A DNA stretch of 64,000 nt from Opitutaceae bacterium (lineage in GTDB: Bacteria > Verrucomicrobiota > Verrucomicrobiia > Opitutales > Opitutaceae): the NCBI GenBank assembly GCA_030693515.1, contig JAUYAK010000085.1:1-64000 (forward strand). The letters are read 5' to 3'. Under the pieces are notes generated by a model. It was given only the letters and a program-made list of their open reading frames with translations. It was not told the origin of the DNA and made no database searches. The stretch's first letter is position 1, and each line of letters begins with the position of its first letter. Positions 21,849-52,016 of this stretch are shown in pieces. Made by a program: the position numbers and the translations under genes.

Positions 21849-21934
21849 GGGGTGGCGGGGTGCGGCGCGAGCATCGGCCGCCCGCAGCGCGCCGCGCAAG
21901 ATCGTCTTGGACACGGCCGCCCTCTTTCCATCGC

Positions 21935-24427
21935 ATGAACGTGCTTCGCGCCGTCCTCTGTCTCCTCGCCGCGCTGCCGCTCTGCGCCGCCGAAGCGCCG
22001 CGTGCCATCAGCGGCATCTACCCGCACCTGGCGATGTTCAACACCCACCACGAGTGTGGCACCGGCGCTGTCGTGCCGTGGGCTGACCGGCTCTGGGTCG
22101 TCACCTACGCGCCGCACCAGCCGCGCGGCGGCAGCGATAAGCTCTACGAGATCACACCCGACCTCCGGCAAATCGTCCGACCCGAGAGCATCGGCGGCAC
22201 GCCGGCCAACCGTTTCATCCACGCCGAGTCTCAGCAGCTTTTCATCGGTCCCTACGCCATCGATGCGCAGCGGCGCGTGCGCGCGATTCCCTACACGCAG
22301 ATGTTTGGCCGCCCCACGGGCAACGCCCGCCACCTCACTGATCCGGCGAACAAGATCTACTATGCCTCGATGGAGGAGGGCTTCTATGAGGTCGATGTGC
22401 GCACGCTCGCCGTCACGGAGCTATTTCGCGACGAACAGGTGAAGGAGCCGTTTCGCCGCGCCGATCTGCCCGGCTATCACGGCAAGGGCCTCTACTCCGG
22501 CCAGGGCGTGCTCGTTTACGCCAACAACGGCGAAAATTCCCCGCTCGCCCGCACCCGCCCCGACATCCCGAGCGGCGCCCTCGCCGAATGGGATGGAAAA
22601 TCGGAGACGTGGACCGTCATCCGCCGCAACCAGTTCACCGAAGTCACCGGCCCCGGCGATCTCTCTGGCAACAAGCATCCCGCCACCGATCCCATCTGGT
22701 CCGTCGGCTGGGATCACCGCTCGCTGATCCTGATGGTGCGCGATGCGAAATCCGGAACTGCGGGAGGGGCATTGCGCCCCGACTCGCCAGCGGACGGATC
22801 TTCGTCGGGGCATAAAGCCCCTCCCACAACCGGCGCCTGGCACATCTACCGGCTCCCGAAGTCGAGCCACTCCTACGACGGCGCGCACGGCTGGAACACC
22901 GAGTGGCCCCGCATCCGCGACATCGGCGAAAAAGACCTGCTCATGACGATGCATGGCGCGTTCTGGCGTTTCCCGAGGAATTTCGATTCCACGCACTCCG
23001 CCGGCATCACGCCGCGCTCCAACTACCTCAAGGTCGTCGGCGATTTTACACGCTGGGGCGATCGCCTTGTGCTCGGCTGCGACGACACCGCGCAGAGCGA
23101 GTTTCTCAACAAGCGCCGCGTGAAGGGCGACGTCGCCGGCCCCGGCCAGTCGCAATCCAACCTCTGGTTCATCGAGCCCGCCCAGCTCGATCGTCTCGGC
23201 CCCGTGATCGGCCGCGGTGCCGTGTGGCTCGATGAGCCCGTGAAAAAGGACGCGCCCTCCGATGCGTTTCTCTTCTCCGGCTACGACGAGCGCACCCTCC
23301 ACCTCGCGCACGACGCGTCCGAACCCGTCACCTTCACGCTCGAGATTGATCGCGCCGGCAACGGCGCGTGGAGCGAAGTGCGCCGCATCACCGTGCCGGC
23401 CGCCGGTTATGTCTTCACGGCATTCACCGATCGCGAACGCGGCGCGTGGATTCGGGTGCGCGCCGCACGCGACCTCGGACGCGCGACCGCTTTCTTCAGC
23501 TATCGCAATCGCGACCCGCGCCCGACCGTGCCGGATTCCCGGTTCGACGATCTCGGCACCGCCGGCGCCAGCGGAGCGCTCCTGCACGCTCGTGGCGCGG
23601 GGAAAAAGACGCTGGGCGTCGCTGGAATCTCCAACCGCCTCACATTTCACGAGCTTAACGAGAACCTCAACCTCGTGCGCACCGACGAGCCCGGCGCCGC
23701 TGAGTGGATGCGCGAGAAAATCTCCCCGCCGCGCAACGCCCTCGGCTACGATGCCGCCTCCGTGATCTACACCGACGAACAGGGCAAGCGCTGGCGCCTG
23801 CCGCGCGGTCACGCCGATTTTTCCTCCACCTCACCGCATGGCGTCGAACGCACGGCGCGCGAAGTCGTCACGGAGCGCGACGTGCTCAATGCTGGCGGCA
23901 CGTTTTTCGAACTACCCGCCGAAAACGCCGGCGGCATCGCCAAGGCCCGCCCCATCGCCACGCACAACCGCCGCATCCACGACTTTGCGAGCTGGCGCGG
24001 TCTGCTCGTGATGTCAGGCGTGGTCGGCAATGCGGCTTCATCCAATCCTCGCATTGTCCACTCCCCGGATCATCAGGCCGCCGTGTGGCTCGGCGTCATC
24101 GACGACCTGTGGTCCTTCGGCAAACCCGTCGGCGTCGGCGGCCCGTGGAAAGACACCGCCGTCAGCGCCGGCGCGCCCTCCGATCCCTATTTGATGACCG
24201 GTTACGACCAGATGTCTCTCGTGCTCTCGCATACTTCGCCCGGCGCCGTTCGCATCCGCCTTGAGATCGACCTCACGGGCACCGGCGTCTGGGCCACCTA
24301 CGCCACCCTCGACGTTCCCGCCGGCCGACCGCTCACTCATGGCTTCCCCGCCGGCTACCAAGCCTATTGGCTCCGCGTCTCCGCCGATGTCGCGACCACC
24401 GCCACCGCCCAGCTCACCTACGAATAA
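21935..24427 (+). CDS. Large secreted protein of unknown function with an intragenic palindrome
   Basis: The 830-residue protein has a signal peptide (MNVLRAVLCLLAALPLCAAE) and a long beta-rich body. I see repeated segments of the type LFSGYDERTLHLAHDASEPVTFTLE and LMTGYDQMSLVLSHTSPGAV, which occur in both halves and look like a duplicated beta domain of about 110 residues. An N-terminal part with HLAMFNTHHECGTGAVVPWA resembles a propeller. A 22-base imperfect palindrome at 22762-22825 is translated in frame near residues 274-300 (see separate entry). It lies 7 bases before the FAD oxidoreductase gene, so the two form an operon. No enzyme motif was recognised; a polymer-binding or structural role in the locus is a guess. 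Confidence 0.75.
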   Translation: MNVLRAVLCLLAALPLCAAEAPRAISGIYPHLAMFNTHHECGTGAVVPWADRLWVVTYAPHQPRGGSDKLYEITPDLRQIVRPESIGGTPANRFIHAESQQLFIGPYAIDAQRRVRAIPYTQMFGRPTGNARHLTDPANKIYYASMEEGFYEVDVRTLAVTELFRDEQVKEPFRRADLPGYHGKGLYSGQGVLVYANNGENSPLARTRPDIPSGALAEWDGKSETWTVIRRNQFTEVTGPGDLSGNKHPATDPIWSVGWDHRSLILMVRDAKSGTAGGALRPDSPADGSSSGHKAPPTTGAWHIYRLPKSSHSYDGAHGWNTEWPRIRDIGEKDLLMTMHGAFWRFPRNFDSTHSAGITPRSNYLKVVGDFTRWGDRLVLGCDDTAQSEFLNKRRVKGDVAGPGQSQSNLWFIEPAQLDRLGPVIGRGAVWLDEPVKKDAPSDAFLFSGYDERTLHLAHDASEPVTFTLEIDRAGNGAWSEVRRITVPAAGYVFTAFTDRERGAWIRVRAARDLGRATAFFSYRNRDPRPTVPDSRFDDLGTAGASGALLHARGAGKKTLGVAGISNRLTFHELNENLNLVRTDEPGAAEWMREKISPPRNALGYDAASVIYTDEQGKRWRLPRGHADFSSTSPHGVERTAREVVTERDVLNAGGTFFELPAENAGGIAKARPIATHNRRIHDFASWRGLLVMSGVVGNAASSNPRIVHSPDHQAAVWLGVIDDLWSFGKPVGVGGPWKDTAVSAGAPSDPYLMTGYDQMSLVLSHTSPGAVRIRLEIDLTGTGVWATYATLDVPAGRPLTHGFPAGYQAYWLRVSADVATTATAQLTYE
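22762..22825. repeat. REP-like palindrome inside a coding sequence
   Basis: The left arm at 22762-22783 (starts GGGAGGGGC, ends CCCCGAC) is the reverse complement of the right arm at 22804-22825 at 19 of 22 positions, with a 20-base spacer. The reading frame passes through it without a stop, adding an Ala/Gly/Ser/Pro-rich stretch (TAGGALRPDSPADGSSSGHK region) between AKSG and GAWHIYRLPK. This looks like an inserted short palindromic element of the REP type. Confidence 0.75.
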
Positions 24428-39495: not shown

Positions 39496-40400
39496 AACGG
39501 ATCGACGAGCCCTACTTTTTGCGACGCCGGGGCCGCCAGCGCCAGCTCGCTCGCCCCGTTGGCCGCGAGGAGCGAAATCATCGCCATGCCGATCCAACCG
39601 CCGCCCTCATCCGACACAGCGGATCGCACTTCGCCCGCGCGTCGCTCCCCCGCGAATAGCGCCGCTGGCAGTGACTCCGGACACTCCCCCGCGCCGCGCA
39701 CGCGCACCAGCCGCCGCCGCACCTGCCCCATGGATTTGAGCCGCGCCATCACTTCCTGGCCGAGGTAGCAGCCCTTGGTGTAGGAAATCGCCTCAGCCTC
39801 GAGACGGGCCTCGTTGGGCAAGTCGCCCGGCCCGACATCGGCCGGCACCGCCGGGATGCCTGCCGCAATCCGCCGCCGCTCGAGCTCGGATTCGGTGAGT
39901 TCAGGCACTGCGGACATGCGCTGAGAAAGCATGGCCGGCAGCCCATCGCCCACCCGGTAGAGGACTTCGAGCCCCGCGCCGCCACGCCGGCCGCGAAAGA
40001 CCACGCCCTCCTGGGTCAAACCCGCATCCCAGCCGGCGACTGCCTGGCCTTCACCCGCAAGCACACTCACGCCCGCCCACGCATCGGTTTCATCGGCCAA
40101 CGTGACATCGTCTGCGATGACATAGCCCTCGAGACGCTCCCGGATCACCGACGCCGCGGAAAAGTAGCTGCCCACCCAAAACTGCCCGGCACCGGCCCCG
40201 CGGATCACAAAACTATCGGCGAGCACCTTTCCTTTTATCGACAACCACAGACCGTAGCGCGCCTCACCCACCTCAATCCCTCGCAGGTCATTGGTGAACT
40301 GCCCTTGGAGAAACGTCGCCGCATCGTCGCCCGTGACCTGCAACCAAGCCGCCGGCCTCCAGGTGAAAACCGCCGCGGAAGTAGTTTTATTGATAGGCAT
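39492..40400 (-). CDS. ygfZ: Folate-binding protein YgfZ/GcvT-like
   Basis: The 302-residue protein carries the YgfZ signature KGCYLGQEVMARLKSMGQVR and the N-terminal GDDAATFLQGQFTNDL of the aminomethyltransferase fold. Family members bind tetrahydrofolate and help maintain iron-sulfur enzymes. It is the first gene of the minus-strand group and faces the DAHP synthase gene across a 286-base region that contains two hairpins. Length is normal for the family. Confidence 0.92.
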   Translation of the reverse strand: MPINKTTSAAVFTWRPAAWLQVTGDDAATFLQGQFTNDLRGIEVGEARYGLWLSIKGKVLADSFVIRGAGAGQFWVGSYFSAASVIRERLEGYVIADDVTLADETDAWAGVSVLAGEGQAVAGWDAGLTQEGVVFRGRRGGAGLEVLYRVGDGLPAMLSQRMSAVPELTESELERRRIAAGIPAVPADVGPGDLPNEARLEAEAISYTKGCYLGQEVMARLKSMGQVRRRLVRVRGAGECPESLPAALFAGERRAGEVRSAVSDEGGGWIGMAMISLLAANGASELALAAPASQKVGLVDPL

Positions 40401-40508
40401 TAAGATGCTTAAAATGAGCGTTTAGAGAAATAAGTGATAGATTTTGAAAACTTGCAGTTGACCGGCCCAATCAAACGCCTATCCCTAGCAACATCAAGTT
40501 TAACACTT

Positions 40509-40531
40509 CTCCCCGCTTAGCGGGGAGTTTT
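40509..40531 (+). terminator. Hairpin with short T-run in the DAHP synthase leader
   Basis: CTCCCCGC (40509-40516) and GCGGGGAG (40520-40527) make an 8-base stem with a 3-base loop, followed by TTTT. It has terminator form on the plus strand but lies upstream of the DAHP synthase gene, with no plus-strand gene ending before it. It could be part of an attenuator with the next hairpin. Confidence 0.55.
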
Positions 40532-40551
40532 GGGGTAACTAAGAAAGCAAA

Positions 40552-40589
40552 GGCCGGCCGCTTAGGGGTAAGCGGCCGGCCACTTTTTT
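40552..40589 (+). terminator. Strong rho-independent terminator-like hairpin upstream of DAHP synthase
   Basis: Arms 40552-40564 and 40569-40581 (GGCCGGCCGCTTA and its exact complement) form a perfect 13-base stem with a GGGG loop, followed after AC by six Ts. It lies 98 bases before the DAHP synthase ATG on the same strand. No plus-strand gene ends just upstream. It may end a short leader transcript or act as a regulated attenuator. Confidence 0.8.
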
Positions 40590-40686
40590 GCCCGGATATC
40601 GCCCCTCGCCTGAAACGCCCGAGCCGGCCGGTCTGCACAAACCGAGACTTGCACCGCCGGAGCGCCGCCCGCCAAGCTGACCCTTC

Positions 40687-41742
40687 ATGCAGAAAACGTC
40701 CGACATCCACGTTGTCGAAACGCGCCCCTTGCCCTCGCCCGCCGCACTCTTGGCCGAACTGCCCAAGACCGAGGCGCAGGCCGAGTTTGTCACCCGGGCG
40801 CGCCGTGAAATCCACCGGCTGATCTTCACCGACGACAAGCGGTTCCTCCTCATCATCGGGCCCTGCTCGATCCACGATCTGGAGGCGGGCCGCGACTACG
40901 CGCGCCGCCTCGCCGGGCTGGCGCGCGAAGTCTCCGACCGCGTCGTGGTCGTGATGCGCGTCTATTTCGAAAAACCGCGCACGACCGTCGGCTGGAAAGG
41001 CCTCGTGATGGACCCGCACCTCGACGGCTCGCACGACATCGCCGCCGGCCTGCGCCTCGGGCGCAGTTTCCTCCGCGACGTCCTGGACCTCGGCCTGCCG
41101 ACCGCGACGGAGTTTCTCGATCCGATCACGCCGCAATACGTCGCGGACCTCGTGTGCTGGGGCGCCATCGGCGCGCGCACCACGGAATCGCAGACGCACC
41201 GCCAGATGGCCAGTGGCCTCTCGATGCCGCTCGGTTTCAAGAACGGCACCGACGGCACCTTCCAAGCCGCCATCAACGCCATCAAGGCCGCCTCCCAGCC
41301 GCAGACGTTTCTCGGCATCAACCTCGACGGCGGCGCCGCCGCCATCGTCACGAGCGGCAATCCCGCCTGCCACGTCGTCCTCCGCGGCGGCGCGGCCGGC
41401 CCCAACTACTCGCCGGCCCACATCGCCCAGACCGAGCAGCTCCTCGCCAAGGCCGGCCTGCCCAAGTCCATCCTCGTGGACTGCTCGCACGACAACTCCG
41501 CCAAGAAACCCGAACTCCAGCCCGAAGTCCTCCGCGCCCTCCTCGATCAGATCGCCGCCGGCAATGCCTCCATCATGGGCGCGATGATCGAGAGCAACCT
41601 CGGCGCCGGCAACCAGACCTTCCCGCAGCCGAAGGAAAAACTCCGCTACGGCGTGAGCATCACGGACGGCTGCATCGACTGGCCCACCACCGAAAAGCTC
41701 ATTCGCGATCTGCACGCGGGCCTCGCCTCGCGCTTTCGTTGA
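40687..41742 (+). CDS. 3-Deoxy-7-phosphoheptulonate (DAHP) synthase, class I alpha
   Basis: The 351-residue protein matches the AroF/AroG/AroH type: LLIIGPCSIHDLEAG, VMRVYFEKPRTTVGWKG, TATEFLDPITPQYVADL, WGAIGARTTESQTHRQMASG, GFKNGTDGT and LVDCSHDNSAKKPELQ (metal site with Cys, His and Asp). It condenses phosphoenolpyruvate and erythrose-4-phosphate, the first step of aromatic amino-acid synthesis. Two terminator-like hairpins precede it and may regulate expression; no leader peptide rich in aromatic codons is visible. Which aromatic amino acid inhibits it cannot be read. Confidence 0.93.
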   Translation: MQKTSDIHVVETRPLPSPAALLAELPKTEAQAEFVTRARREIHRLIFTDDKRFLLIIGPCSIHDLEAGRDYARRLAGLAREVSDRVVVVMRVYFEKPRTTVGWKGLVMDPHLDGSHDIAAGLRLGRSFLRDVLDLGLPTATEFLDPITPQYVADLVCWGAIGARTTESQTHRQMASGLSMPLGFKNGTDGTFQAAINAIKAASQPQTFLGINLDGGAAAIVTSGNPACHVVLRGGAAGPNYSPAHIAQTEQLLAKAGLPKSILVDCSHDNSAKKPELQPEVLRALLDQIAAGNASIMGAMIESNLGAGNQTFPQPKEKLRYGVSITDGCIDWPTTEKLIRDLHAGLASRFR

Positions 41743-41815
41743 AATCATTTTCCCGGCCGAAAAATTCTTTCGCGTTTTTCGTGTGTTTCGCGGTTAACCC
41801 GTCCCTCATTTCCTC

Positions 41816-42799
41816 ATGAAGACTCCCCTTCGCGTCGCCGTCACCGGAGCCGCCGGTCAAATCGGCTACTCCCTCCTCTTCCGCATCGCCTCCGGCGCGA
41901 TGTTCGGCCCCGACCAGCCCGTGATCCTCCAGCTCATCGAGGCCCCGATCGAGAAGGCGCTGCAGGCTCTCGGCGGCGTCGCCATGGAGCTCGACGACTG
42001 CGCCTTCCCCCTGCTGAAGGGCATCGTCCAAACCTCCGATCCCGCCGTCGGCTTCAAGGACGCCAACTGGTGCCTCCTCGTCGGTGCCAAGCCCCGCGGC
42101 CCGGGCATGGAGCGCGCCGACCTCCTCAAGGACAACGGCAAGATCTTCATCGGCCAGGGCCAGATCATCGACGCCGTCGCCGCCGCCGATGCCCGCGTCT
42201 GCGTGGTCGGCAATCCCGCCAACACCAACTGCATGATCGCCGCCTCGCAGGCGAAACGCCTCCCCGCGGAGCGCTTCACCGCGATGGTCCGCCTCGATCA
42301 GAACCGCGCGCAGACCCAGCTCGCCAAAAAAGCCGGCGTCGATCTCACCGCCGTGAAGGACATCTTCATCTACGGCAACCACAGCCCCACGATGTTTCCC
42401 TCGTTCGCGCACGCCACGATCAACGGCCAGCCTGCGACCTCCGTCATCACCGACACCGCCTGGCTCCAGGGCCCGTTCTGCGAGACCGTCTGCAAGCGCG
42501 GCGCCGCCATCATCGCCGCGCGCGGCCTCTCCTCCGCCGCCTCCGCCGCCAACGCCCTCGTCGATCACGTGCGCTCGCTCGTCACGCCCGGCGCGATCCA
42601 CTCCCTCGCGGTGAAGAGCGAGGGCCGTTACGGCTTCGATGCCAATGTCTGGGCTGGCATGCCCGTCCGCACCACGACGCCCGGCAGCTACGAAGTCATC
42701 ACGAGCTACGTCATGGACGATTTCGCGAAATCCAAAATCGCCGCGACCAACAAGGAACTCGTGGACGAGCGCTCCTTCGTCGCCGACATGATCAAGTAA
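41816..42799 (+). CDS. mdh: Malate dehydrogenase
   Basis: The 327-residue protein has the NAD-binding [19 protein letters not shown], the substrate loop [30 protein letters not shown], and [12 protein letters not shown] with [13 protein letters not shown] containing the catalytic His. This is the type typical of cytosolic and many bacterial malate dehydrogenases rather than the LDH-like type. It oxidises malate to oxaloacetate in the TCA cycle. A clear terminator follows at 42825-42854. The preceding 73 bases include a short AT-richer stretch before the ATG. Confidence 0.95.
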
Positions 42800-42824
42800 C
42801 GAAAACTCGTTTTCGCTATCTCCA

Positions 42825-42854
42825 CGGCGCCCTCATCCGGGTGCCGTTTTTTTT
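42825..42854 (+). terminator. Rho-independent terminator of the malate dehydrogenase gene
   Basis: CGGCGCCC (42825-42832) pairs with GGGTGCCG (42839-42846), 8 base pairs with one G-U, with a 6-base loop and eight Ts at 42847-42854. It begins 26 bases after the mdh stop. Confidence 0.85.
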
Positions 42855-42856
42855 GC

Positions 42857-42932
42857 AGCGCGAAGACGCCAAGGCGCGACGCTCGCACTCACTTCCTTCT
42901 CGGCTTTCTTCGCGCCTTGGCGTCTTCGCGCT
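42857..42932. repeat. Perfect 23-base inverted repeat downstream of mdh
   Basis: Arms at 42857-42879 (contains GCGAAGACGCCAAGGCGCG) and 42910-42932 are exact reverse complements, separated by 30 bases. It lies between the mdh terminator and the convergent gene. The sequence has the look of a dispersed intergenic repeat rather than a terminator, since no T-run follows it. Confidence 0.85.
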
Positions 42933-42945
42933 TAGTTTGCTTTTC

Positions 42946-43641
42946 CTACCCGATCAGCCCGCTCAGCGCCTTGCTGATCTGAAACGCCGCGCGCACCGCG
43001 CCAAACGCCTCAATCAGCTCCGCCGGCCCGGCGCCCCGCGGAAACACCACTTCGAGCGTCGCACCCGTGCAGCGCACCTCCGCCTCGACCCCGTCCACGC
43101 GGATCGTGCATTCGCTGCCATCCGAGGGATAGGACACCTCCAGCCCGCCCTCGCCATCCAGCGCCTCGATCGCGTCGATCACCGCCTCCACCCGCACGCC
43201 TTTCTTCAGCGCAATGGAGATCTCCGTGAACCGCCCCGCAAAGATCCGGGCAAACTCGTCCCGCCGCGCGAGGTCGGCATCGCCCAGCTCACGCAGCGTC
43301 GTCGTCACCGCGTAGCGCGCCGCATCCCGCTCCTCGAGCGCGTAGAAAATCTCCACCGTGAAATCCCGCGCCGTCAGCACCGCGAGCGGGCTCGTCACGT
43401 TCAGCGCGACCTCCTTGCGCTTGTAGCCGAGCCCGGCACGCACGGCTTGGAACAACCGCTCCGCCTCGTCCGCCAGCTCCGTGTCGCAAATTTTGCCGAG
43501 GAAGGCGTTGGTCGTGGCGTTGGCCGCATCCGGCACCGTGTGGTGGCCCTTCTTGAAACCCGCCAGTGTCTTCACCGCGCCGGCTGATCGCCCGACAAAT
43601 GCGATGCTCGCGACGACGCGCGACGGGAGTGGTTCGGCCAT
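42946..43641 (-). CDS. Conserved-looking cytoplasmic protein of unknown function
   Basis: With the start at ATG 43639-43641 the product is 231 residues and has no signal peptide or membrane segment. It reads as an alternating alpha/beta protein (VVASIAFVGRSAGAVKTLAG, VEIFYALEERDAARYAVTT, ISIALKKGVRVEAVIDAIEAL, ECTIRVDGVEAEVRCTG). No catalytic motif or known domain was recognised. The frame continues upstream of the chosen start into the region of the small membrane-protein gene, which argues for the shorter form. Confidence 0.6.
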   Translation of the reverse strand: MAEPLPSRVVASIAFVGRSAGAVKTLAGFKKGHHTVPDAANATTNAFLGKICDTELADEAERLFQAVRAGLGYKRKEVALNVTSPLAVLTARDFTVEIFYALEERDAARYAVTTTLRELGDADLARRDEFARIFAGRFTEISIALKKGVRVEAVIDAIEALDGEGGLEVSYPSDGSECTIRVDGVEAEVRCTGATLEVVFPRGAGPAELIEAFGAVRAAFQISKALSGLIG

Positions 43642-43688
43642 GCGCAGCGAGCAAACGCGCCGCGCTCCCGCCCGCCAGCCCGAAAAAC

Positions 43689-43913
43689 TCACGCCGTCCG
43701 CCGCCCCGCCCGCACAATCAGAGAGACAATCCCCGTGACGACCAGCACCGGCACCCACAGCGGCGCCAGCACCACCGTCAAACCCATCCCCAGCGCCACC
43801 AGGCCCGCGAGCAGGATCGCCAGGATGCAACCGAGCGCCAGCGTGAGCGGCAGCAGCTTGAGCGCGACCAGCGCCAGACACACGAGCAGGAAAATCTTCA
43901 GGAAGGATTTCAT
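43689..43913 (-). CDS. Small integral membrane protein of unknown function
   Basis: The 74-residue protein is almost entirely hydrophobic, with two transmembrane helices (FLKIFLLVCLALVALKLLPL and LGMGLTVVLAPLWVPVLVVT) and a basic C-terminus (RAGRRTA). The basic end suggests the C-terminus stays in the cytoplasm. It precedes the 231-residue gene by about 47 bases on the same strand, so co-expression is possible. No family is recognisable at this length. Confidence 0.65.
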   Translation of the reverse strand: MKSFLKIFLLVCLALVALKLLPLTLALGCILAILLAGLVALGMGLTVVLAPLWVPVLVVTGIVSLIVRAGRRTA

Positions 43914-43976
43914 GCCTAGGAAAACCCGGCTACCCGAGAAAAGTTGCAGCCATTCCCTCCGACCCCGGCGCGCCGC

Positions 43977-45428
43977 CTACTCGTGGTTCCACTTGCGCGC
44001 CCACGGATCCTTGGTCGCGATCTGAAACGCCTTCACCTTGGCCAGCAGTTCGGCCTTGAGCGCCTGCTGCGCGGGATCGTCGGCGAGGTTTTCCACCTCG
44101 GCGGGATCGCGCGTGAGGTCGTAAAGCTCGAGCTTCGGACGGTGCAAAAAGCGCTCGATGGGCCGGCGCCCCAGCCGCGCGCGGCCCGCCTCGTTCGCGC
44201 TGATCCACGTCGGCGACTTGATGAGGTCGAGCGCCGAGGGATAGGTCAGGTCGTGCGCGAGGTTCACGATCAGTTTGTGTGTGCGGGTGCGCACCGCACG
44301 CATCGGGTAATACATCGTGACCTCGTGCAGCGTATGGGACGCGTAGATTTCGTTCCACCCGCGCAGTTCGCGGCCGTCGAAGCCGGCCCGGAAGGAGCGT
44401 CCGTCGCATTCGCCGGCGGCGGGCGGCGCACCGGCCGCGTCGAGCAGCGTGGGCGTGAGGTCGGCCCAGGTGACCATCGCATCTTGCACCGCGCCGGGCT
44501 GCGTGCGACCCGGCGCGCGCACGATCAGCGGCAAGCGGATGCCGGGATCGTAGAGCGTGGTCTTGGCGCCGGGAAACGCCGCGCCGTTGTCGGAGAGATA
44601 GACGATGAGCGTGGACTCGTATTTACCCGCGGCCTTGAGGATCGCGATGAGGCGGCCGATGCCCTGATCGAGCCGCGCGATCGCCTGGTAATATTCCGCG
44701 ATTTCGGCCCGGGTCGCCGGGGTGTCCGAAAGCCACGATGGCACGGGCACCTCCTCGGGCCGGAACACCACCGGCGTGATGCCGGGATAGCCCGCGACGC
44801 GGTTGCCAAAGGAATTGGGTTGCGGCCATGTGTCGAATGTCGGACGGCCATCGGGCAGGACGGCGTTGGCGCGGTGCGGATCGTCGGTCGCAAAATAGAG
44901 GAAGAACGGCCGCGCATCATCCGCCTCGATCACACGGCGCGACTGCTCGGCCATCTCGACGGGACTGCGCCCGATGGTCGCGGGGTCGTTGGCCGCGCCG
45001 GCGGAGAGCACGGTCTCGAACGCATAGACCGCCTCGGGCGCGACGTGGAACTTGCCGATGCGCGCCGTGCGGTAGCCCGCGGCGGCGAGCCGCACGGGCA
45101 GGCTCTTCACGTGCGCATACGACTGGAAATGGTGATCATCATGCTGGAGGCCATACATGCCGTTGCGGTGGTTGTGCTGACCGGTGAGGAGCACGGAGCG
45201 CGACGGACTGCAGCTCGCCGTCGTGCAGAACGCCTCGTTGAACCGCGTGCCATCGGCCGCGAGCGCGTCGAGCGCCGGAGTTTTTACGACGGCGTTGCCG
45301 TAGCAGCCGAGCGCCTCGCGCCCATGGTCGTCGGAGACGATGAGGAGGATGTTGGGCCGCGCCACTGCGGCGGAGAGCGGCGCCGAGCCGAGCGCAAACA
45401 GGATGAGGGCGGGGAAAACAAAACGCAT
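43977..45428 (-). CDS. Secreted sulfatase, heparan-N-sulfatase-like
   Basis: The 483-residue protein has a signal peptide (MRFVFPALILFALGSAPLSA). Sulfatase motifs are PNILLIVSDDHGREALGCYG (metal Asp pair), ASCSPSRSVLLTGQHNHRNG (formylglycine motif with intact Cys), RIGKFHVAPE and YLSDNGAAFPG. The overall pattern is closer to sulfamidase-type enzymes than to the first sulfatase of the window, but the substrate is not established. It diverges from the DUF1016-type gene across about 105 bases. ATG 45428 starts the signal peptide. Confidence 0.9.
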   Translation of the reverse strand: MRFVFPALILFALGSAPLSAAVARPNILLIVSDDHGREALGCYGNAVVKTPALDALAADGTRFNEAFCTTASCSPSRSVLLTGQHNHRNGMYGLQHDDHHFQSYAHVKSLPVRLAAAGYRTARIGKFHVAPEAVYAFETVLSAGAANDPATIGRSPVEMAEQSRRVIEADDARPFFLYFATDDPHRANAVLPDGRPTFDTWPQPNSFGNRVAGYPGITPVVFRPEEVPVPSWLSDTPATRAEIAEYYQAIARLDQGIGRLIAILKAAGKYESTLIVYLSDNGAAFPGAKTTLYDPGIRLPLIVRAPGRTQPGAVQDAMVTWADLTPTLLDAAGAPPAAGECDGRSFRAGFDGRELRGWNEIYASHTLHEVTMYYPMRAVRTRTHKLIVNLAHDLTYPSALDLIKSPTWISANEAGRARLGRRPIERFLHRPKLELYDLTRDPAEVENLADDPAQQALKAELLAKVKAFQIATKDPWARKWNHE

Positions 45429-45532
45429 GGGGCGGCATGAGTGTGAGCGCAGCGCGCGCGCCGCGTCGCGCAAAATCTCGCCAGCTTCCCCGAACTCGCG
45501 ATTCTCCCGGCTGCCACGGTCCAGCCCGCGCC

Positions 45533-46717
45533 ATGAAGAAACGCCCCGCACCCAAGCCCCGCACCGCCGCCACCTACCCCCGCCTGATCGGCGGCATCGG
45601 CGCGCTGCTCGAGACCTCCCGCCACACGGCCGCGCGGGCGGTGAATTCGCTGATGACGGCGACCTACTGGGAAATTGGCCGCCGCATCGTCGAGTTTGAG
45701 CAGGGCGGCAAGCGGCGCGCCGGGTATGGCGACGAGCTGCTCAAGCGGCTGGCGGCGGATTTGACCTCGCGGTTCGGACGGGGGTTTTCCCAGCGCAGCC
45801 TCCAAAACATGCGCGCATTTTTCAGCTGTTTTCCACCCGATCAGATTTGGCAGACAGTGTCTGCCAAATCCGATCGGCCCGCCTTGGCCCCAATTTCGCA
45901 GACACTGTCTGCCAAATCCGCCCGTGAGCCCAAGCGAGCGACCTTGACGATCGACCCGGCCGGCCCCGCCCCGTCCCTGGCCGATCTCGCCCGCGCTTTC
46001 CCGCTGCCGTGGTCGCACTACGTCCTGCTCCTTTCGGCGCGATCGCTAGACGCACGCACCTTCTATCACACCGAGGCCCTGCGCGGCGGCTGGAGCGTGC
46101 GCCAGCTTGAGCGGCAGATCGGCACACTCTTCTACGAGCGCACCGCGCTATCCAAAAACAAGGCGGCCATGCTGCAGAAAGGCGCGCGGCCGCAGCCCAG
46201 CGAAGCGCTCAGCGCCACCGAGGCCATCCGTGATCCGCTCGTGCTGGAATTCCTCGACCTGCGCGACGAATACTCCGAGAGCGACTTGGAGCACGCGCTG
46301 GTGCGCCACCTCGAGACTTTCCTGATCGAGCTCGGCGGCGACTTCGCCTTTGTCGGCCGCCAGCGCCGGCTGCGGATCGACGACGAGTGGTATCGCGTGG
46401 ACCTGCTCTTTTTCCACCGCCGCCTGCGCTGCCTCGTCATCGTCGATCTCAAGCTCGGCAAGTTCACGCACGCCGATGCGGGCCAGATGCACCTCTATCT
46501 GAGCTACGCCAAGGAACACTGGACGCATCCGGGCGAGAACCCGCCTGTGGGTCTGATCCTCTGCTCCAGTGCCGGCCAAAACATCGTGCGCTACACCCTC
46601 GACACGCTGCCGACCAAAGTCATGGCCCGCGACTACCGGCTGGCGCTGCCCGATGAGAAACAGCTGGGCCGCGAGCTCGCGCAGGCGCGAAAGAAAATCG
46701 CGGGCCGCCGCCGGTGA
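45533..46717 (+). CDS. DUF1016/YhcG-family PD-(D/E)XK nuclease-like protein
   Basis: The 394-residue protein has the DUF1016 N-terminal domain (MTATYWEIGRRIVEFEQGGK, RAGYGDELLKRLAADLTSRF, GFSQRSLQNMRAF) and a C-terminal nuclease-like domain (LRIDDEWYRVDLLFFHR, CLVIVDLKLGKFTHADAGQM). That gives the Asp ... Asp-Leu-Lys pattern of PD-(D/E)XK enzymes. The family is associated with mobile DNA and defence but has no settled function. Between the two domains lie two near-copies of a peptide motif (IWQTVSAKS and ISQTLSAKS), encoded by DNA palindromes at 45845-45868 and 45895-45916. ATG 45533 begins the family N-terminus. Confidence 0.85.
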   Translation: MKKRPAPKPRTAATYPRLIGGIGALLETSRHTAARAVNSLMTATYWEIGRRIVEFEQGGKRRAGYGDELLKRLAADLTSRFGRGFSQRSLQNMRAFFSCFPPDQIWQTVSAKSDRPALAPISQTLSAKSAREPKRATLTIDPAGPAPSLADLARAFPLPWSHYVLLLSARSLDARTFYHTEALRGGWSVRQLERQIGTLFYERTALSKNKAAMLQKGARPQPSEALSATEAIRDPLVLEFLDLRDEYSESDLEHALVRHLETFLIELGGDFAFVGRQRRLRIDDEWYRVDLLFFHRRLRCLVIVDLKLGKFTHADAGQMHLYLSYAKEHWTHPGENPPVGLILCSSAGQNIVRYTLDTLPTKVMARDYRLALPDEKQLGRELAQARKKIAGRRR

Positions 46718-46748
46718 GCACCCGACCCGTTCCGTATCACTCGTCGCC

Positions 46749-47138
46749 ATGCCCGCCCCCATCCCCGTCGTCGCCGCCGTCATCCTCAATGCCGCCGGCC
46801 GCGTGCTGCTCGCACAGCGGCCGGCGCACAAGCACCTCGGGCTCAAGTGGGAGTTTCCCGGTGGCAAGGTCGAGCCGGGCGAGGCGCCCGAGGTCGCGCT
46901 CGTGCGCGAAATCCGCGAGGAGCTGGGCTGCGACATCTTCATCCGCCGCGCCCTGCCTCGCTTCACGCACGACTACGGCACGGTTGTCATCGAGATGATC
47001 CCGTTCGTCTGCGAACTAGCGCCCGCCGGACCGCCGCCACATGCGCATGAGCACGCGGCGCTGGCGTGGGTCGAAGTCGCCCAATTAAAAGACTACGACC
47101 TCGCGCCGGCGGATTGGCCGGTGCTGCCGCATTTGTAG
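46749..47138 (+). CDS. NUDIX hydrolase, MutT type
   Basis: The 129-residue protein has a complete NUDIX box, GGKVEPGEAPEVALVREIRE followed by ELG, within WEFPGGKV. The N-terminal VVAAVILNAAGRVLLAQRP and late WPVLPHL match MutT/CTP-pyrophosphatase-type enzymes, which hydrolyse oxidised or unusual nucleotides. The stop TAG 47136-47138 is part of a palindromic element starting at about 47134, so the final residues may have been altered by its arrival. It starts 31 bases after the nuclease-like gene. Confidence 0.9.
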   Translation: MPAPIPVVAAVILNAAGRVLLAQRPAHKHLGLKWEFPGGKVEPGEAPEVALVREIREELGCDIFIRRALPRFTHDYGTVVIEMIPFVCELAPAGPPPHAHEHAALAWVEVAQLKDYDLAPADWPVLPHL

Positions 47139-47170
47139 GGCCGCGGCTGGCGTCGAGCGCCGGCCCTGCA
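47134..47170. repeat. Palindromic element carrying the stop codon of the NUDIX gene
   Basis: TGTAGGGCC (47134-47142) and GGCCCTGCA (47162-47170) pair at 8 of 9 positions around an inner GGCG ... CGCC stem. The element overlaps the last codon and stop of the NUDIX gene. It shares the TGTAGGGC-type edge with the palindrome at 48877. Confidence 0.6.
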
Positions 47171-47206
47171 CTCGACACGCCCAGTGCGTCGATTCACTCT
47201 GCGCCC

Positions 47207-49978
47207 ATGCCGTCCGCCCCGCTCCCGCTCGAAGCCGTTTCCCGCCTGCCTGCGCCGGGCGACAACGTCGCGATCGCGATCCGGCGCATCGAGGTGGGCG
47301 AGGTGCTGGCGCTCGCCGGCGGCCTGCGCGCGCTGCCGCACACGGTGCTGGAGGGCCATCGTTTCGCCGTGCAGCCGATCGCGGCCGGCGAGTCGCTGCT
47401 CTCGTGGGGCCTGCCCTTTGGCCGAGCCCTGTGGCCCATCGCGCCGGGCGACTACGTGACCAATCGCGCGATGCTCGAGGGCCTCGCCGTCCGCCAGATC
47501 GGTGCCGCCGTGCTGCCGGCCACGGCCAACTTTGAGGATTCGCTCGAAGCCTTCACGCTCGACGAAAAAAAGATCCGCGCCGCGCCGGCCGTGCCACGCG
47601 CGCATCCCGCGCGCACGTTCGCCGGCTATCGCCGCCCCGCCAACCGCGGCGTCGGCACGCGCAACACCATCGTCGTCCTCGGCACCTCGTCGCGCGCCGC
47701 CAGCTTCGCGCGGCAGCTCGTCGCGCGGCTCCAGCCGCTCGCGCGCGTCCATCCCACCCTCGATGGCCTCGTCGCCATCGCGCACACCGAGGGCGGCGGC
47801 CCCGGCGAGGGCAACAACGCGCCCGAGGTGCTGCGCACGCTCGCCGGGTTCATGGTGCATCCGAATGTCGGCGCCGTGCTCGCCGTCGACTACGGGGTCG
47901 AGCCGGTGAACAACGCGCGCCTGCGCGACTTCATGCTGGCGCACGGCTACCCGCTCGACGCTGTGCCGCATCAGTTTCTCTCGCTCGATCGCGGGCTCGC
48001 CGCCGGACTCGCCGAGGGCGAGCGCCTCGTGCGTGGCTGGCTGCCCGCCGTCGCCGCCGAGCGCCGCACCGAGGAGCCGCTCAGCGCCCTGCGCATCGCG
48101 CTCCAGTGCGGCGGGTCGGATGCGTTTTCCGGCGTCTCGGGCAATCCCCTCGCCGGCGCGCTCGTGCACGAGGCCATCCGCCACGGCGCGACGGGCGTGC
48201 TGACCGAGACCGACGAATCGATGGGCGCGGAAAACTACCTCCTGTCCAACGTCCGCGACCTCGCGACGGCACGCGCCTTTGTCGGCAAGCTCGATGCGTT
48301 TCGCGAGAAGCTCACGTGGCACGGGCTCACGCCTGAGAGCAATCCCTCCGCCGGCAACCGCTTCCGCGGCCTCTACAACATCGCGCTGAAATCCCTCGGC
48401 GCCGTGCACAAGAAAGACCCGCGCACGCCGCTCCAGACCGTGATCGACTACGCGCAGCCGCTGCGCGATCTCGCGGACCCGGGCTTCACCTTCATGAACG
48501 GCCCCGGCAACGACCTCGAGGGCATCGCCGGGCAGGTCGCCGCCGGCTGCAACCTGATCCTCTTCGTCACCGGCAACGGCTCGATCACGAATTTCCCGTT
48601 CGTCCCCACGCTCAAGGTGACCACGACCACGCGCCGCCACACGCTGCTGATCCACGAGATGGACCTCAACGCCGGCCGCTACCTCGACGGCGAGCCGATG
48701 GCCGCCGTCGCGGCCGATGGCTTCGAGACGCTCGTCGCCACCGCCTCGGGCAAAAAATCCCAGGGCGAGCGCGCCGGCCACTCGCAGGTCTCGATTTGGC
48801 GCAACTGGCGGCAGACCGACACGTCTCAGCTCGCCGCGCTCAAGGCGCGCACCGCGCCCGATGGTGAGCCGCTGCCAGTAGGGCGGGTCTTTGACCCTCC
48901 CTTTCTCGCGTTGAGTGTCCGCACCGAGGGCGGGTCACAGACCCGCCCTACTCTAAACCCGCTCCCCTTTTTCCACACCCCCGACGGCCGCGTCGCCACC
49001 GAGCGCATCGGCCTCATTTTGCCCACGAGCCTCTGCGCCACGCAGATCGCGCGCCTCGCCGCCGAGCGGCTCAACGCCGGACCGCTCGCCGCCGCGCACG
49101 GGCTCACGCGCTGGATCGGCTTCACGCACACCGAGGGCTGCGGCTTCGGCGGCGAGACGATGTATCACCTGCTGCACCGGACCTACCGCGGCTACCTCAC
49201 GCACCCCAACATCGCCGCCGCCCTCCTGCTCGAGCACGGCTGCGAAAAGGTGCCCAACGATGTGATGCGCCACCACCTCGCCGCCGCGGGCGTGGACACC
49301 TCGCGCCTCGGCTGGACCAGCGTGCAGCTCGACGGCGGCATCGCCAAGGCCCTCGACAAAATCGAGACGTGGTTCACCGAGAAACTCCCCACGCTACCCG
49401 CTGCGGTGCCCACCCCCGCCTCGCTCGGCACGCTCAATCTCGCCCTGATCGCGGCCGGCCCCGTCGGCCCCGCCGCCGCCGCGGCCTTCGCCTCGATCGC
49501 GCGGGCCTTCCTGCACGCGGGCGGTTCTGTGCTCCTCGCCGAGGGTGATCCGCTGCTCGCGAGCGCGGAATTCCGCGGCGCGGTGCTCGGCGCCACGGCG
49601 CCGCACGCTACGCTCGCCTACGGCCAGCCGCTCACGCGCGCCGGCCTGCACCTCATCGCGAGCGAGACGGATCACTGGGTGGAAAACCTGACCGGCCTCT
49701 GCGGCTGCGGCGCGCATCTCGCGCTCGGCCTCGCCACCGAACACGGCCGCCAGGGCCACCCGATGCTCCCGCTCGTGCAGGTCGCCGAGCCCGCCGAGCG
49801 CGGCCGCATCCCCGGGGACGACATCGACCTCTTCCTGTCCGGCGACGCCCCCGCCGATGCGGACGCCATGGTCGCGCGCCTCGCCGCCGTCGCGCAGCGC
49901 CAGCAATCGGGCGTCGCGAGCGAACGCGGTCTGGTCGATTTCCAACTCACCCGCGGCCTGTTGGGCCTAACGACCTGA
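47207..49978 (+). CDS. Extended UxaA-family altronate/galactarate dehydratase-like protein
   Basis: The 923-residue protein is nearly twice the usual UxaA length. Residues ~1-110 resemble the SAF-type N-terminus. Residues ~135-330 (RPANRGVGTRNTIVVLGTSS, AHTEGGGPGEGNN, HPNVGAVLAVDYGVE) and ~340-545 (LRIALQCGGSDAFSGVSGNP, DSMGAENYLL-like region, TFMNGPGNDLEGIAGQVAAG, LILFVTGNGSITNFPFVPTL) are the two UxaA catalytic domains. A third block at ~600-720 (RIGLILPTSLCATQIARLAA, HTEGCGFGG, HPNIAAALLLEHGCE) repeats the first catalytic domain. A palindrome at 48877-48952 is translated inside the linker. It likely dehydrates a sugar acid, but the substrate is uncertain. Confidence 0.82.
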   Translation: MPSAPLPLEAVSRLPAPGDNVAIAIRRIEVGEVLALAGGLRALPHTVLEGHRFAVQPIAAGESLLSWGLPFGRALWPIAPGDYVTNRAMLEGLAVRQIGAAVLPATANFEDSLEAFTLDEKKIRAAPAVPRAHPARTFAGYRRPANRGVGTRNTIVVLGTSSRAASFARQLVARLQPLARVHPTLDGLVAIAHTEGGGPGEGNNAPEVLRTLAGFMVHPNVGAVLAVDYGVEPVNNARLRDFMLAHGYPLDAVPHQFLSLDRGLAAGLAEGERLVRGWLPAVAAERRTEEPLSALRIALQCGGSDAFSGVSGNPLAGALVHEAIRHGATGVLTETDESMGAENYLLSNVRDLATARAFVGKLDAFREKLTWHGLTPESNPSAGNRFRGLYNIALKSLGAVHKKDPRTPLQTVIDYAQPLRDLADPGFTFMNGPGNDLEGIAGQVAAGCNLILFVTGNGSITNFPFVPTLKVTTTTRRHTLLIHEMDLNAGRYLDGEPMAAVAADGFETLVATASGKKSQGERAGHSQVSIWRNWRQTDTSQLAALKARTAPDGEPLPVGRVFDPPFLALSVRTEGGSQTRPTLNPLPFFHTPDGRVATERIGLILPTSLCATQIARLAAERLNAGPLAAAHGLTRWIGFTHTEGCGFGGETMYHLLHRTYRGYLTHPNIAAALLLEHGCEKVPNDVMRHHLAAAGVDTSRLGWTSVQLDGGIAKALDKIETWFTEKLPTLPAAVPTPASLGTLNLALIAAGPVGPAAAAAFASIARAFLHAGGSVLLAEGDPLLASAEFRGAVLGATAPHATLAYGQPLTRAGLHLIASETDHWVENLTGLCGCGAHLALGLATEHGRQGHPMLPLVQVAEPAERGRIPGDDIDLFLSGDAPADADAMVARLAAVAQRQQSGVASERGLVDFQLTRGLLGLTT
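48877..48952. repeat. REP-like palindrome inside the UxaA-family coding sequence
   Basis: The left arm at 48877-48897 (AGTAGGGCGGGTC...) matches the reverse complement of the right arm ending at 48952 at about 20 of 21 positions, with a ~30-base centre. It is read through in frame and encodes VGRVFDPPFLALSVRTEGGS and a few more residues, in the linker before the duplicated domain. The translated stretch has no counterpart in the flanking UxaA domains. Confidence 0.75.
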
Positions 49979-50331
49979 CCGGCGTCCTGGCACCTTGGCG
50001 ACGTGGCCAGCCCCAAACTCCAAAGCCTGCCCCCCTCCGGCTCCCCCTCCGCGATCCCGAGGCGTCCACAGAGGCAATCAAATCCACCATCCAATTCCTC
50101 GACCACGGCCTGCGCGGCTACTACTGCGCCTTCGCCGGCCCCAAGACCGCCACCATCCGCCGCAGCGCCAAGGTGTTCGCCGCGTGATTACCAAGGCCGA
50201 GCGGCCTTTCGCCCCTCAAGGAGGCCGCGCCGCCAGCATCACCCACCTCGGAAGCTGCGCCACCAAAGGAAATCTCTGTCACTGACGCGCAGAAATCGTT
50301 TGGTCCTTGTTTACGCCACCATGCTTCGTGA
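49979..50331. other. 353-base region with a possible gene remnant
   Basis: No intact gene is visible. A plus-strand frame without a start codon (about 50041-50187, stop TGA 50185-50187) encodes a plausible C-terminal tail (STIQFLDHGLRGYYCAFAGP), which looks like the end of a degraded gene. A 6-base stem at 50193-50208 (AAGGCC ... GGCCTT) follows it. The region marks the boundary to the lower-GC Mrr-like gene. Confidence 0.4.
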
Positions 50332-51360
50332 GTGTGCGGACAGCCCAATATCCCTATTCGCAAGAAACGCTCATTGGCCAAAAAATCTGGTGACGCATAT
50401 CAAGACGCCGTCGCATTCGTCGCTAGGAACCTAGAACCGTCCGCCGAGATTCGGGTGGGAACTTGGATCGATGGCCCGGACGGACGCCGCGATCTTGACG
50501 TAGTGCTGCAGAAGAAAACGCCCGGTGCACCAAAGGTAGTTATCGAATGCAAAGACTGGAACAGGCCTATCGGCATCGGATTCATTGATGCTCTAGAATC
50601 AAAACGGCGGGACATTGGGGCCTCGGTGGCGATGATCTGCAGCAACTCGGGTTTTTCGTCCGACGCACTTCGAAAAGCCGCCCGAGTTGGGATTCCTACT
50701 TTGGCAGCCTTGATTGAAGGTGATCGCAGAATCCGCGTCGTCGTCCGAGAGCAGATCTTCACACGCATCGTGGACTTCGTTCATCACGGGTGCTCCATTC
50801 ACCATCAGGCCCACTCAGCTGGAGCGAATGACCTCCTCCAGAACCACTACACGAAGGAGTGGCTCTACTGTGGAAAATCTCTGGAATCGTGGGTTGCGGG
50901 AAAGCTAATGAGAATCGGCGTTCACGCTTCTCGATCGCACTCAATCCTTCTGAAGCATATCTTTAAGGCATTGGTGCCCTTCGACATTCGAGGAACGAGT
51001 ATTCTAGTTAGTGGTGTAGACATCAAAGCGAAATTCAACGTGCAGTGGATGACGCAGGTCGCCGAAATCGGAGCGTCGAGCGGAATGTATGATTACATGC
51101 GGAAGGTGGTCCTGTTTGGCCCGGGATGCTTCCAGTTTCATCTCAAAAACATCGACACGAAAACTTGGGGAGAACCCATCGCGATTGAAGAGGTCCCACC
51201 TCACCTGCTCCAACATCCTATCCCGACCTTCGGGGCATCTACTCCCCAAGTCGCGATGTCGCTGAGCATGCTACGGAATATGCCTCAAAGCGATCCGAAG
51301 GACGCGCCAGACCTAGACCCCCTTGTTCTCAGCCAAACGATCCTAAACGACGGCGTATAG
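50332..51360 (+). CDS. Mrr-like restriction endonuclease family protein
   Basis: The 342-residue protein has an N-terminal PD-(D/E)XK nuclease domain of the Mrr type: RRDLDVVLQ (Asp), KVVIECKDWNRPIG (Glu-x-Lys) and the following FIDALESKRRDIGASVAMIC, then TLAALIEG. The C-terminal ~200 residues are unassigned, with YTKEWLYCGKSLESWVAGKL and VLFGPGCFQFHLKN. Codon use and base composition are much less GC-rich than the neighbours, suggesting recent transfer. The start is GTG 50332; TTG 50374 is also possible. It may act in restriction of foreign DNA, but no methylase gene is adjacent. Confidence 0.78.
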   Translation: MCGQPNIPIRKKRSLAKKSGDAYQDAVAFVARNLEPSAEIRVGTWIDGPDGRRDLDVVLQKKTPGAPKVVIECKDWNRPIGIGFIDALESKRRDIGASVAMICSNSGFSSDALRKAARVGIPTLAALIEGDRRIRVVVREQIFTRIVDFVHHGCSIHHQAHSAGANDLLQNHYTKEWLYCGKSLESWVAGKLMRIGVHASRSHSILLKHIFKALVPFDIRGTSILVSGVDIKAKFNVQWMTQVAEIGASSGMYDYMRKVVLFGPGCFQFHLKNIDTKTWGEPIAIEEVPPHLLQHPIPTFGASTPQVAMSLSMLRNMPQSDPKDAPDLDPLVLSQTILNDGV

Positions 51361-51443
51361 CACGACGGCAAGAAACCGCGGCCACAATTCTTCATCAGTG
51401 AGATATTACGCGAGCAGTGACACCAACACCAAAGCCAACGCCG

Positions 51444-52016
51444 ATGAAGAATGATAAATCCGAAAACGCGCTCCCGCCCAAACAACGCGAAGAACTGCTC
51501 GCCACGTTACAGGCTCGCCTTGAGGAGAACCCGCAGCGCCACCCGAAGCTCGACTGGACGAAGGTCAAGGCGCGGCTGGAGGCGCAGCCCGAGAAACTGT
51601 GGTCGCTCGCCGAGATGGAGCGGGCGGGGGGCGAGCCGCATGTCGTCGGGCACGACGCGAAGACGGGCGAGGTCATCTTTTTCGATTGCTCGGCACAGAG
51701 CCCGAAAGGCCGCGAGAGTCTGTGCTACGACCGTGCGGCGCTGGATGGCCGGAAGAAATTCCCGCCGAAGGGCTGCGTCACCGAGGCTGCGGCGGCGCTG
51801 GGCGCCGAGCTGCTCGACGAGACGCAATATTTCGCACTGCAGGAACTCGGGAAATTCGACACGAAGACCTCGAGCTGGCTCAGGACCCCGCCGGAAATCC
51901 GCCAGCTCGGCGGCGCAATCTATGGCGACCGCCGCTACAACCGCACCTTCATCGGCCACAACGGCGCCGACTCCTACTACAGTGGCCGGGGCTTCCGTTG
52001 CTCACTGCGGGTCTGA
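51444..52016 (+). CDS. DUF4256-family protein
   Basis: The 190-residue protein matches the DUF4256 family throughout: MERAGGEPHVVGHDAKTGEV, FFDCSAQSPKGRESLCYDR, ALGAELLDETQYFALQELGK, FDTKTSSWLRTPPEIRQLGG and NGADSYYSGRGFRCSLRV at the end. The family is cytoplasmic and has no known function. ATG 51444 is taken; a GTG nine codons earlier (51417) is possible. It stands between the low-GC Mrr-like gene and an ArsR/SRPBCC operon and is itself back to normal GC content. An inverted repeat follows it. Confidence 0.88.
   Translation: MKNDKSENALPPKQREELLATLQARLEENPQRHPKLDWTKVKARLEAQPEKLWSLAEMERAGGEPHVVGHDAKTGEVIFFDCSAQSPKGRESLCYDRAALDGRKKFPPKGCVTEAAAALGAELLDETQYFALQELGKFDTKTSSWLRTPPEIRQLGGAIYGDRRYNRTFIGHNGADSYYSGRGFRCSLRV

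What the first reader, a model, noticed from the sequence alone, without database searches (positions are those of the whole stretch)
48877..48952. Second palindrome translated in frame inside a UxaA-family gene
A different palindrome (AGTAGGGCGGGTC-type arms) sits in the linker of the extended UxaA protein, also keeping the frame. Two independent intragenic events in one window, of different sequence families, argue for a general tolerance or mechanism rather than a single accident.
Basis: partly seen in the sequence, partly recalled or inferred. Interest (0 to 1): 0.6.

Follow-up and report, generated by a model that had tools for sequence, protein, structure and literature searches.

The report
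Mobile REP hairpin inside a gene
A 76-base mobile hairpin that is repeated across this bacterium's genome sits inside an enzyme gene and is read through as about 25 extra amino acids that the protein seems to tolerate, and related bacteria have had the same protein linker hit by other such hairpins.

Summary
It is a REPIN, a dimer of GTAG-headed REPs. The arm 12-mer occurs 111 times in the own genome (reversed control 1) and 0-3 times in ten same-genus genomes. Of 60 paired copies scored, six lie in frame in genes by my criterion. The linker was invaded repeatedly: 10 of 75 orthologue linkers carry an identifiable REP element, from at least three families shown to be multicopy in a host genome; parsimony on 66 sequences needs seven changes. 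A transposase (RAYT) flanked by this REP exists in a relative; none was found beside it in the own genome. Intragenic GTAG REP dimers are published, with the most in Opitutus terrae (PMC3733652). So: real, a known kind, with an unusually clear hot spot. A more surprising find came in passing: a RAYT-type transposase domain in frame inside alaS in at least 5 of 200 family genomes, this one included.

The parts
48877..48902 (+). left REP arm, AGTAGGGCGGGTC..., GTAG head
   Evidence: inverted repeat; genome copies
48903..48926 (+). 24-nt spacer between the two REP arms
48927..48952 (-). right REP arm (inverted), ...GACCCGCCCTACT
   Evidence: exact 12-mer at 48940-48951
47066..49978 (+). UxaA-family ORF that reads through the element (GD_AH_second, GD_AH_C matches before it); ORF from GTG 47066, part shared with orthologues from about 47216
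   Evidence: ORF; Pfam; orthologues
48875..48994 (+). linker after the invariant Pro-Leu (552-553) up to the conserved Ala-Thr (594-595); variable in length and sequence among orthologues
   Evidence: residues 560-579 coil with pLDDT below 50 in a weak model

Best explanation
The stretch is a REPIN: two GTAG-headed REP sequences in inverted orientation, a non-autonomous mobile element of the kind moved by a REP-associated tyrosine transposase (RAYT), an HUH enzyme that recognises the REP hairpin in single-stranded DNA. One copy landed in the segment of the uxaA-like gene that codes for a linker between domains. The left arm is open in one frame only (GTA GGG CGG GTC, read VGRV); the spacer and right arm stay open too, so translation continues and adds about 25 residues, probably unstructured, which the protein tolerates. 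Shown: the element, its copies, the open frame, its absence from the closest orthologues, several REP insertions in the same linker. Inferred: movement by a RAYT, and that the enzyme still works.
For: Hairpin and arms. 111 exact arm 12-mers, reversed control 1; 30 BLAST rows cover at least 72 of the 76 bases at 84% identity or better; 62 distinct paired copies in fetched loci, GTAG bases at 92-98% over 120 ends (the ends were picked by similarity to this arm, so this is an upper figure). Same-genus genomes 0-3 hits, at the level of their reversed controls: a recent amplification. Orthologue linkers differ; hairpin z (RNA parameters) below -3 in 7 of 66 linkers against 1 of 392 control windows from the same genes; the 40 linkers not flagged at that time (L135 among them) do not differ from controls (p 0.54). 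Other in-frame hosts in this genome: menC, glpD, fdhF-like, glycosyltransferase, TIR-TPR. REPtron: a 199-aa RAYT in G028 flanked by GTGGGGCGGGTC and GTAGGGCGGGTC; its 56% homologue in same-genus G122 is flanked by GTAGCGCGGGTC.
Against: No exact empty site: the linker is only 18-51 nt longer than in eight same-genus orthologues and 30 nt longer than in the nearest named relative L252, less than the 76-nt element, and 76 is not a multiple of three, so bases were lost or trimmed. No RAYT flanked by this REP was found at 11 RAYT-like places of the own genome; a REPIN copy lies about 2.5 kb from one of them. The nearest own RAYTs are 39% and 35% identical to the G028 one, and the 39% one has different inverted repeats. 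In G017, the other carrier of this arm type, the 12-mer is not above its control (5 against 7). Movement was not observed.
Confidence: 0.92

Rival explanations
1. The repeat is selected for as protein sequence: the encoded peptide is a functional linker and its DNA symmetry is secondary.
For: Six in-frame copies in this genome read the left arm in the same frame.
Against: That frame is the only open one: the TAG of the GTAG head and a TGA in the arm close the others (read from the sequence). Orthologues use unrelated linker sequences and lengths, and the six hosts are unrelated proteins.
Confidence: 0.03
2. Ancestral linker sequence inherited from one old REPIN, merely decaying or converting in each lineage, rather than repeated new insertions.
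For: The elements of the window, G017, G031, G050, G026, G146 and G043 start at the same codon after Pro-Leu-x; some linkers without an element (L114, L143) keep a GTG codon there.
Against: At least three REP families are involved; carriers are scattered, seven changes at minimum on the tree (some nodes weak); the unflagged linkers show no excess hairpin; the G160 and L257 elements start at other positions.
Confidence: 0.1
3. An RNA element (terminator, attenuator or regulatory hairpin) within the transcript.
For: Strong fold (computed with DNA parameters).
Against: No Rfam match at the element in 40000-52000 up to E 0.1; element absent from most orthologues.
Confidence: 0.03

Closest known systems
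Intragenic GTAG REP dimers of Opitutus terrae (PMC3733652; sections 15 and 16, first part of 17 and passages read)
   Same: GTAG or GTGG head, inverted dimers, inside ORFs, 20-30 encoded residues; [quoted passage not shown] terrae, and different REPs at about the same site of recB in two Xanthomonas species
   Different: Stem sequences could not be compared (figures and supplements not seen); a search of its main text for uxaA and altronate gave 0; here one linker is hit by several families in several genera
REPIN (PMC3116915, passages read)
   Same: Two inverted REPs with a variable spacer that fold into a hairpin
   Different: The passages seen treat copies in extragenic space; this copy is intragenic
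RAYT / TnpA-REP REPtrons (PMC8266576, passages read)
   Same: GTAG head, palindromic stem, a RAYT flanked by the same REP in relative G028
   Different: Cognate RAYT not found in the own genome; cleavage not tested
Rickettsia palindromic elements (PMC10969869, a review, passages read)
   Same: Repeated palindromes translated in frame in unrelated genes
   Different: [quoted passage not shown] here 76 nt with one open frame in the left arm

Membership tests
REPIN / GTAG REP dimer | GTAG (or GTRG) tetranucleotide at the outer end of each palindrome | tested here: met
   Both ends GTAG; 92-98% per base over 120 ends of the family, ends picked by similarity
REPIN / GTAG REP dimer | Two REPs in inverted orientation with a short spacer | tested here: met
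REPIN / GTAG REP dimer | Many dispersed copies in the genome | tested here: met
   111 exact arms
REPIN / GTAG REP dimer | Mostly extragenic location | tested here: inconclusive
   6 of 60 scored copies lie in frame in genes; the rest were not sorted into intergenic and gene-breaking
REPIN / GTAG REP dimer | RAYT gene flanked by the same REP in the own genome (not strictly defining: PMC3733652 section 16 says REPtrons may be missing, lost by deletion) | tested here: not met
   11 RAYT-like places, none with this 12-mer beside it; one has a copy about 2.5 kb away
REPIN / GTAG REP dimer | RAYT gene flanked by the same REP in a related genome | tested here: met
   L205 in G028
REPIN / GTAG REP dimer | Cleavage of the REP strand by the RAYT | not testable with these tools
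   needs biochemistry
Rickettsia palindromic element | About 150-bp element with an ORF for a conserved peptide (as described in PMC10969869) | tested here: not met
   76 nt; one open frame in the left arm

The most novel reading that the evidence does not exclude
In this bacterial family RAYT elements have taken protein loops as a habitat: short REPINs are written again and again into the same permissive linkers (uxaA), and whole transposase genes live in frame inside an essential gene (alaS), where loss of the insert is hard and the embedded enzyme stays under selection and may still act on REPs, an intein-like lifestyle without splicing.
Probability: 0.2. Interest if true: 0.85.

Novelty: new member of a known kind. 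Interest (0 to 1): 0.5.

Why it matters
It turns an isolated oddity into a countable process: one protein linker across many Opitutaceae records several arrivals of mobile hairpins, with empty and occupied states side by side. One can then ask directly how often a mobile element supplies new protein sequence and what decides whether it is kept. The alaS case, if confirmed at the bench, would show a transposase carried as a domain of an essential enzyme.

Tried and rejected
Codon scoring with a model trained on long window ORFs misjudged strands (left of the uxaA element it preferred the antisense); retrained on UxaA genes. That the linker is always hairpin-prone was rejected. The L117 (G023) palindrome was first flagged as a REP, but its core is single-copy in G023 and it is not counted; L118 was looked at as a remnant and is not counted; L253 and L255 show REP-like symmetry that was not confirmed and are not counted. 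A target-site rule (insertion at an existing GTGG) was left open for want of a clean empty site. Promoter and terminator scans were not run. The UxaA model is weak (mean pLDDT 67.6, pTM 0.50), so no fold search was made.

Rows and choices: the 75 linkers are 49 (window included) + 17 + 8 + 1 (G018). From (97 of 200 genomes matched) I used hits that reach the linker; L156 stopped short and was replaced by L294 of the same genome; G087 repeats L279; G195 has Ns and a frame break in the linker; G019 and G127 gave no alignable linker; distant hits without the linker were not used. Of 111 arm hits 100 places were listed and not each was fetched; 63 paired elements were found, one counted twice, two at contig edges, leaving 60 scored. 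The threshold for 'in frame' (codon score above 0.1 on both sides, at least 40 residues of ORF on each side) was set after seeing the scores; L024 passes narrowly (0.14, 0.16). In one search the sixth protein (L105) had wrong coordinates and its empty result means nothing.

Full report
What is there. The window is G000:C42:1-64000 of a 6.65 Mb, 130-contig genome. Of 32 UxaA relatives in named records, most titles say Opitutae, Opitutaceae, Opitutus or Verrucomicrobia MAGs; a few carry labels such as Spartobacteria or Pirellula. The stretch 48877-48952 is an inverted repeat with 26-nt arms, 92% complementary, 24-nt spacer. It folds as single-stranded DNA at z -6.4. It lies in frame in a UxaA-family ORF whose best GD_AH_second and GD_AH_C matches lie before it.

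A repeated element. GTAGGGCGGGTC occurs 61 + 50 times in the own genome against 0 + 1 for the reversed pattern. BLAST with the 76-mer scored 40 of 113 candidates, at 82-100% identity, most of them nearly full length. Fetched loci gave 63 paired elements, one counted twice (L056), so 62 places; the commonest lengths are 71 nt (17 rows) and 76 nt (15 rows). In ten same-genus genomes the 12-mer occurs 0-3 times, no more than its reversed control as a rule; it is high in a few other genera (29 in G196, 32 in G107, 37 in G087, 42 in G028, 48 in G059, 65 in G043). The family is a lineage-specific amplification.

In genes, in frame. With a codon model trained on UxaA genes, 60 distinct copies with both flanks were scored. 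Six are crossed by an ORF with coding signal on both sides in the same frame: uxaA, menC (L020), a TIR-TPR protein (L024, narrow), glpD (L068), an FdhF/YdeP-type oxidoreductase (L081) and a glycosyltransferase (L098). Family models run across the insert in menC, glpD, the oxidoreductase and the glycosyltransferase and lie on either side of it in the TIR-TPR protein. The six read the left arm in the frame GTA GGG CGG GTC or a one-base variant of it; in this arm the other two frames hold TAG and TGA. Two long crossing ORFs without codon support (L040, L074) had no Pfam match. Gene-breaking insertions were not counted, so this is not a test of a frame bias.

The linker as a hot spot. Among 75 orthologue linkers, 10 carry an identifiable REP element: the window and G017 (GTAGGGCGGGTC type; G017 with changes); G031, G050, G102 (decayed), G026, G146 and G043 (GTGGAGCGCGTTG type; G026 and G146 a single arm); G160 (GTAGGAGCCTGC type); and L257 (GTAGGGGCGTCGC type). 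Three families are multicopy in a host: the window's own; GTGGAGCGCGTTG with 14 in G031, 60 in G050, 51 in G026, 43 in G146 and 330 in G043, reversed controls 1-5; GTAGGAGCCTGCTTGCAGGC with 12 in G160, control 0. Against this, in G102 the GTGG 13-mer occurs once and in G017 the GTAG 12-mer 5 times, neither above control; the L257 type was not counted genome-wide. In G043 the contig breaks inside the element. On a 66-sequence tree without G043, parsimony needs seven changes, gains or losses; some nodes are weak (0.16 near L257, 0.46 near L109), so seven is rough. Hairpin z is below -3 in 7 of 66 linkers and 1 of 392 same-gene control windows. The overall shift of the first 49 linkers is not significant (p 0.07); it is the tail that differs.

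The transposase. The own genome has 7 Y1_Tnp Pfam places and four further RAYT-like places found with a protein query. None has GTAGGGCGGGTC beside it; one (C25) has a REPIN about 2.5 kb away. In G028 a 199-aa RAYT is flanked by this REP; 56% homologues in G122 and G031 are flanked by related GTAG REPs. The GTGG family has a REPtron in G087 (L201). Published work reports that TnpA-REP enzymes cleave single-stranded REPs and that the GTAG takes part in recognition and site choice (PMC8266576, passages). The link to the window element is an inference from these.

Known or new. PMC3733652 (sections 15-16, first part of 17, passages) reports intragenic GTAG dimers, most in Opitutus terrae, one family there mostly GTGG-tagged, and recurrence at about one recB site in two Xanthomonas species. 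Four searches on related terms listed no other paper that by title or abstract start deals with this in Opitutaceae; apart from those named here their papers were not opened. The window element is a new member of that kind.

In passing: alaS. In at least 5 of 200 family genomes (G000, G093, G080, G027, and G002 with its contigs broken at the left end of the insert) a transposase-like stretch (193-221 residues in the four complete ones) sits at the same place of alanyl-tRNA synthetase; the hit list is cut, so there may be more. In the own genome it matches Pfam Y1_Tnp (25.6 bits, cut-off 23) and NCBIfam NF047646, REP-associated tyrosine transposase (78.4 bits, just under its cut-off of 80). In the 26 other alaS loci compared, the span is 47-128 residues where the four have 241-269. 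No second alaS is listed above the cut of the list (E 8.8e-227) for those four. The PDHVH motif is present in all five (its catalytic role is recalled). dN/dS is lower in the insert than in the host in five of six pairs (G000-G093: 0.127/0.76 against 0.218/0.62; the exception is G093-G027), while dN alone is higher in the insert in three pairs; dS is near saturation. The host tree puts G093 with G027 and G000 and G080 apart, which suggests several arrivals or transfers. The ends read GGGGAGCG, close to the GGGGWSAS motif of TIR-flanked transposases in PMC3733652 section 16. Two searches listed no report of it; PMC3733652 does mention REPs, not a transposase, in tRNA synthetase genes of other bacteria.

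Noticed in passing
G000:C44:24217-27597 (L104:2218-5598): RAYT-type Y1 transposase domain, about 193 residues with REP-like inverted ends, in frame inside alaS; same site occupied in at least 5 of 200 family genomes from four genera; dN/dS lower than in the host gene in five of six pairs.
   Followed up: partly
window 22759-22828: Third in-frame palindrome, in an 855-aa ORF (21860-24427) without Pfam match but with coding signal on both sides; a close copy of its arms flanks a RAYT-like gene in G043 (L212).
   Followed up: partly
A weak Rfam miRNA hit there, far below the gathering score, looks like chance.
   Followed up: partly
window 42857-42932: Perfect 23-nt inverted repeat (AGCGCGAAGACGCCAAGGCGCGA) just after an ORF that ends at 42799 and looks like malate dehydrogenase by eye; seems intergenic.
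   Followed up: no
L253, L255, L267, L273 uxaA linkers: L253 and L255 show GGAG-headed symmetrical stretches, L267 and L273 short tandem repeats in the same linker, so other kinds of repeats may settle there too.
   Followed up: no
L022 and L099; L085, L086, L090, L091: REPINs with the same flanking sequence on different contigs, so they sit within larger repeated units.
   Followed up: no
G000:C120 (L105): RAYT-like gene flanked by 19-nt inverted repeats that contain GTAGCGGCGGGCG, so a further REP family with its own REPtron is likely in this genome.
   Followed up: no
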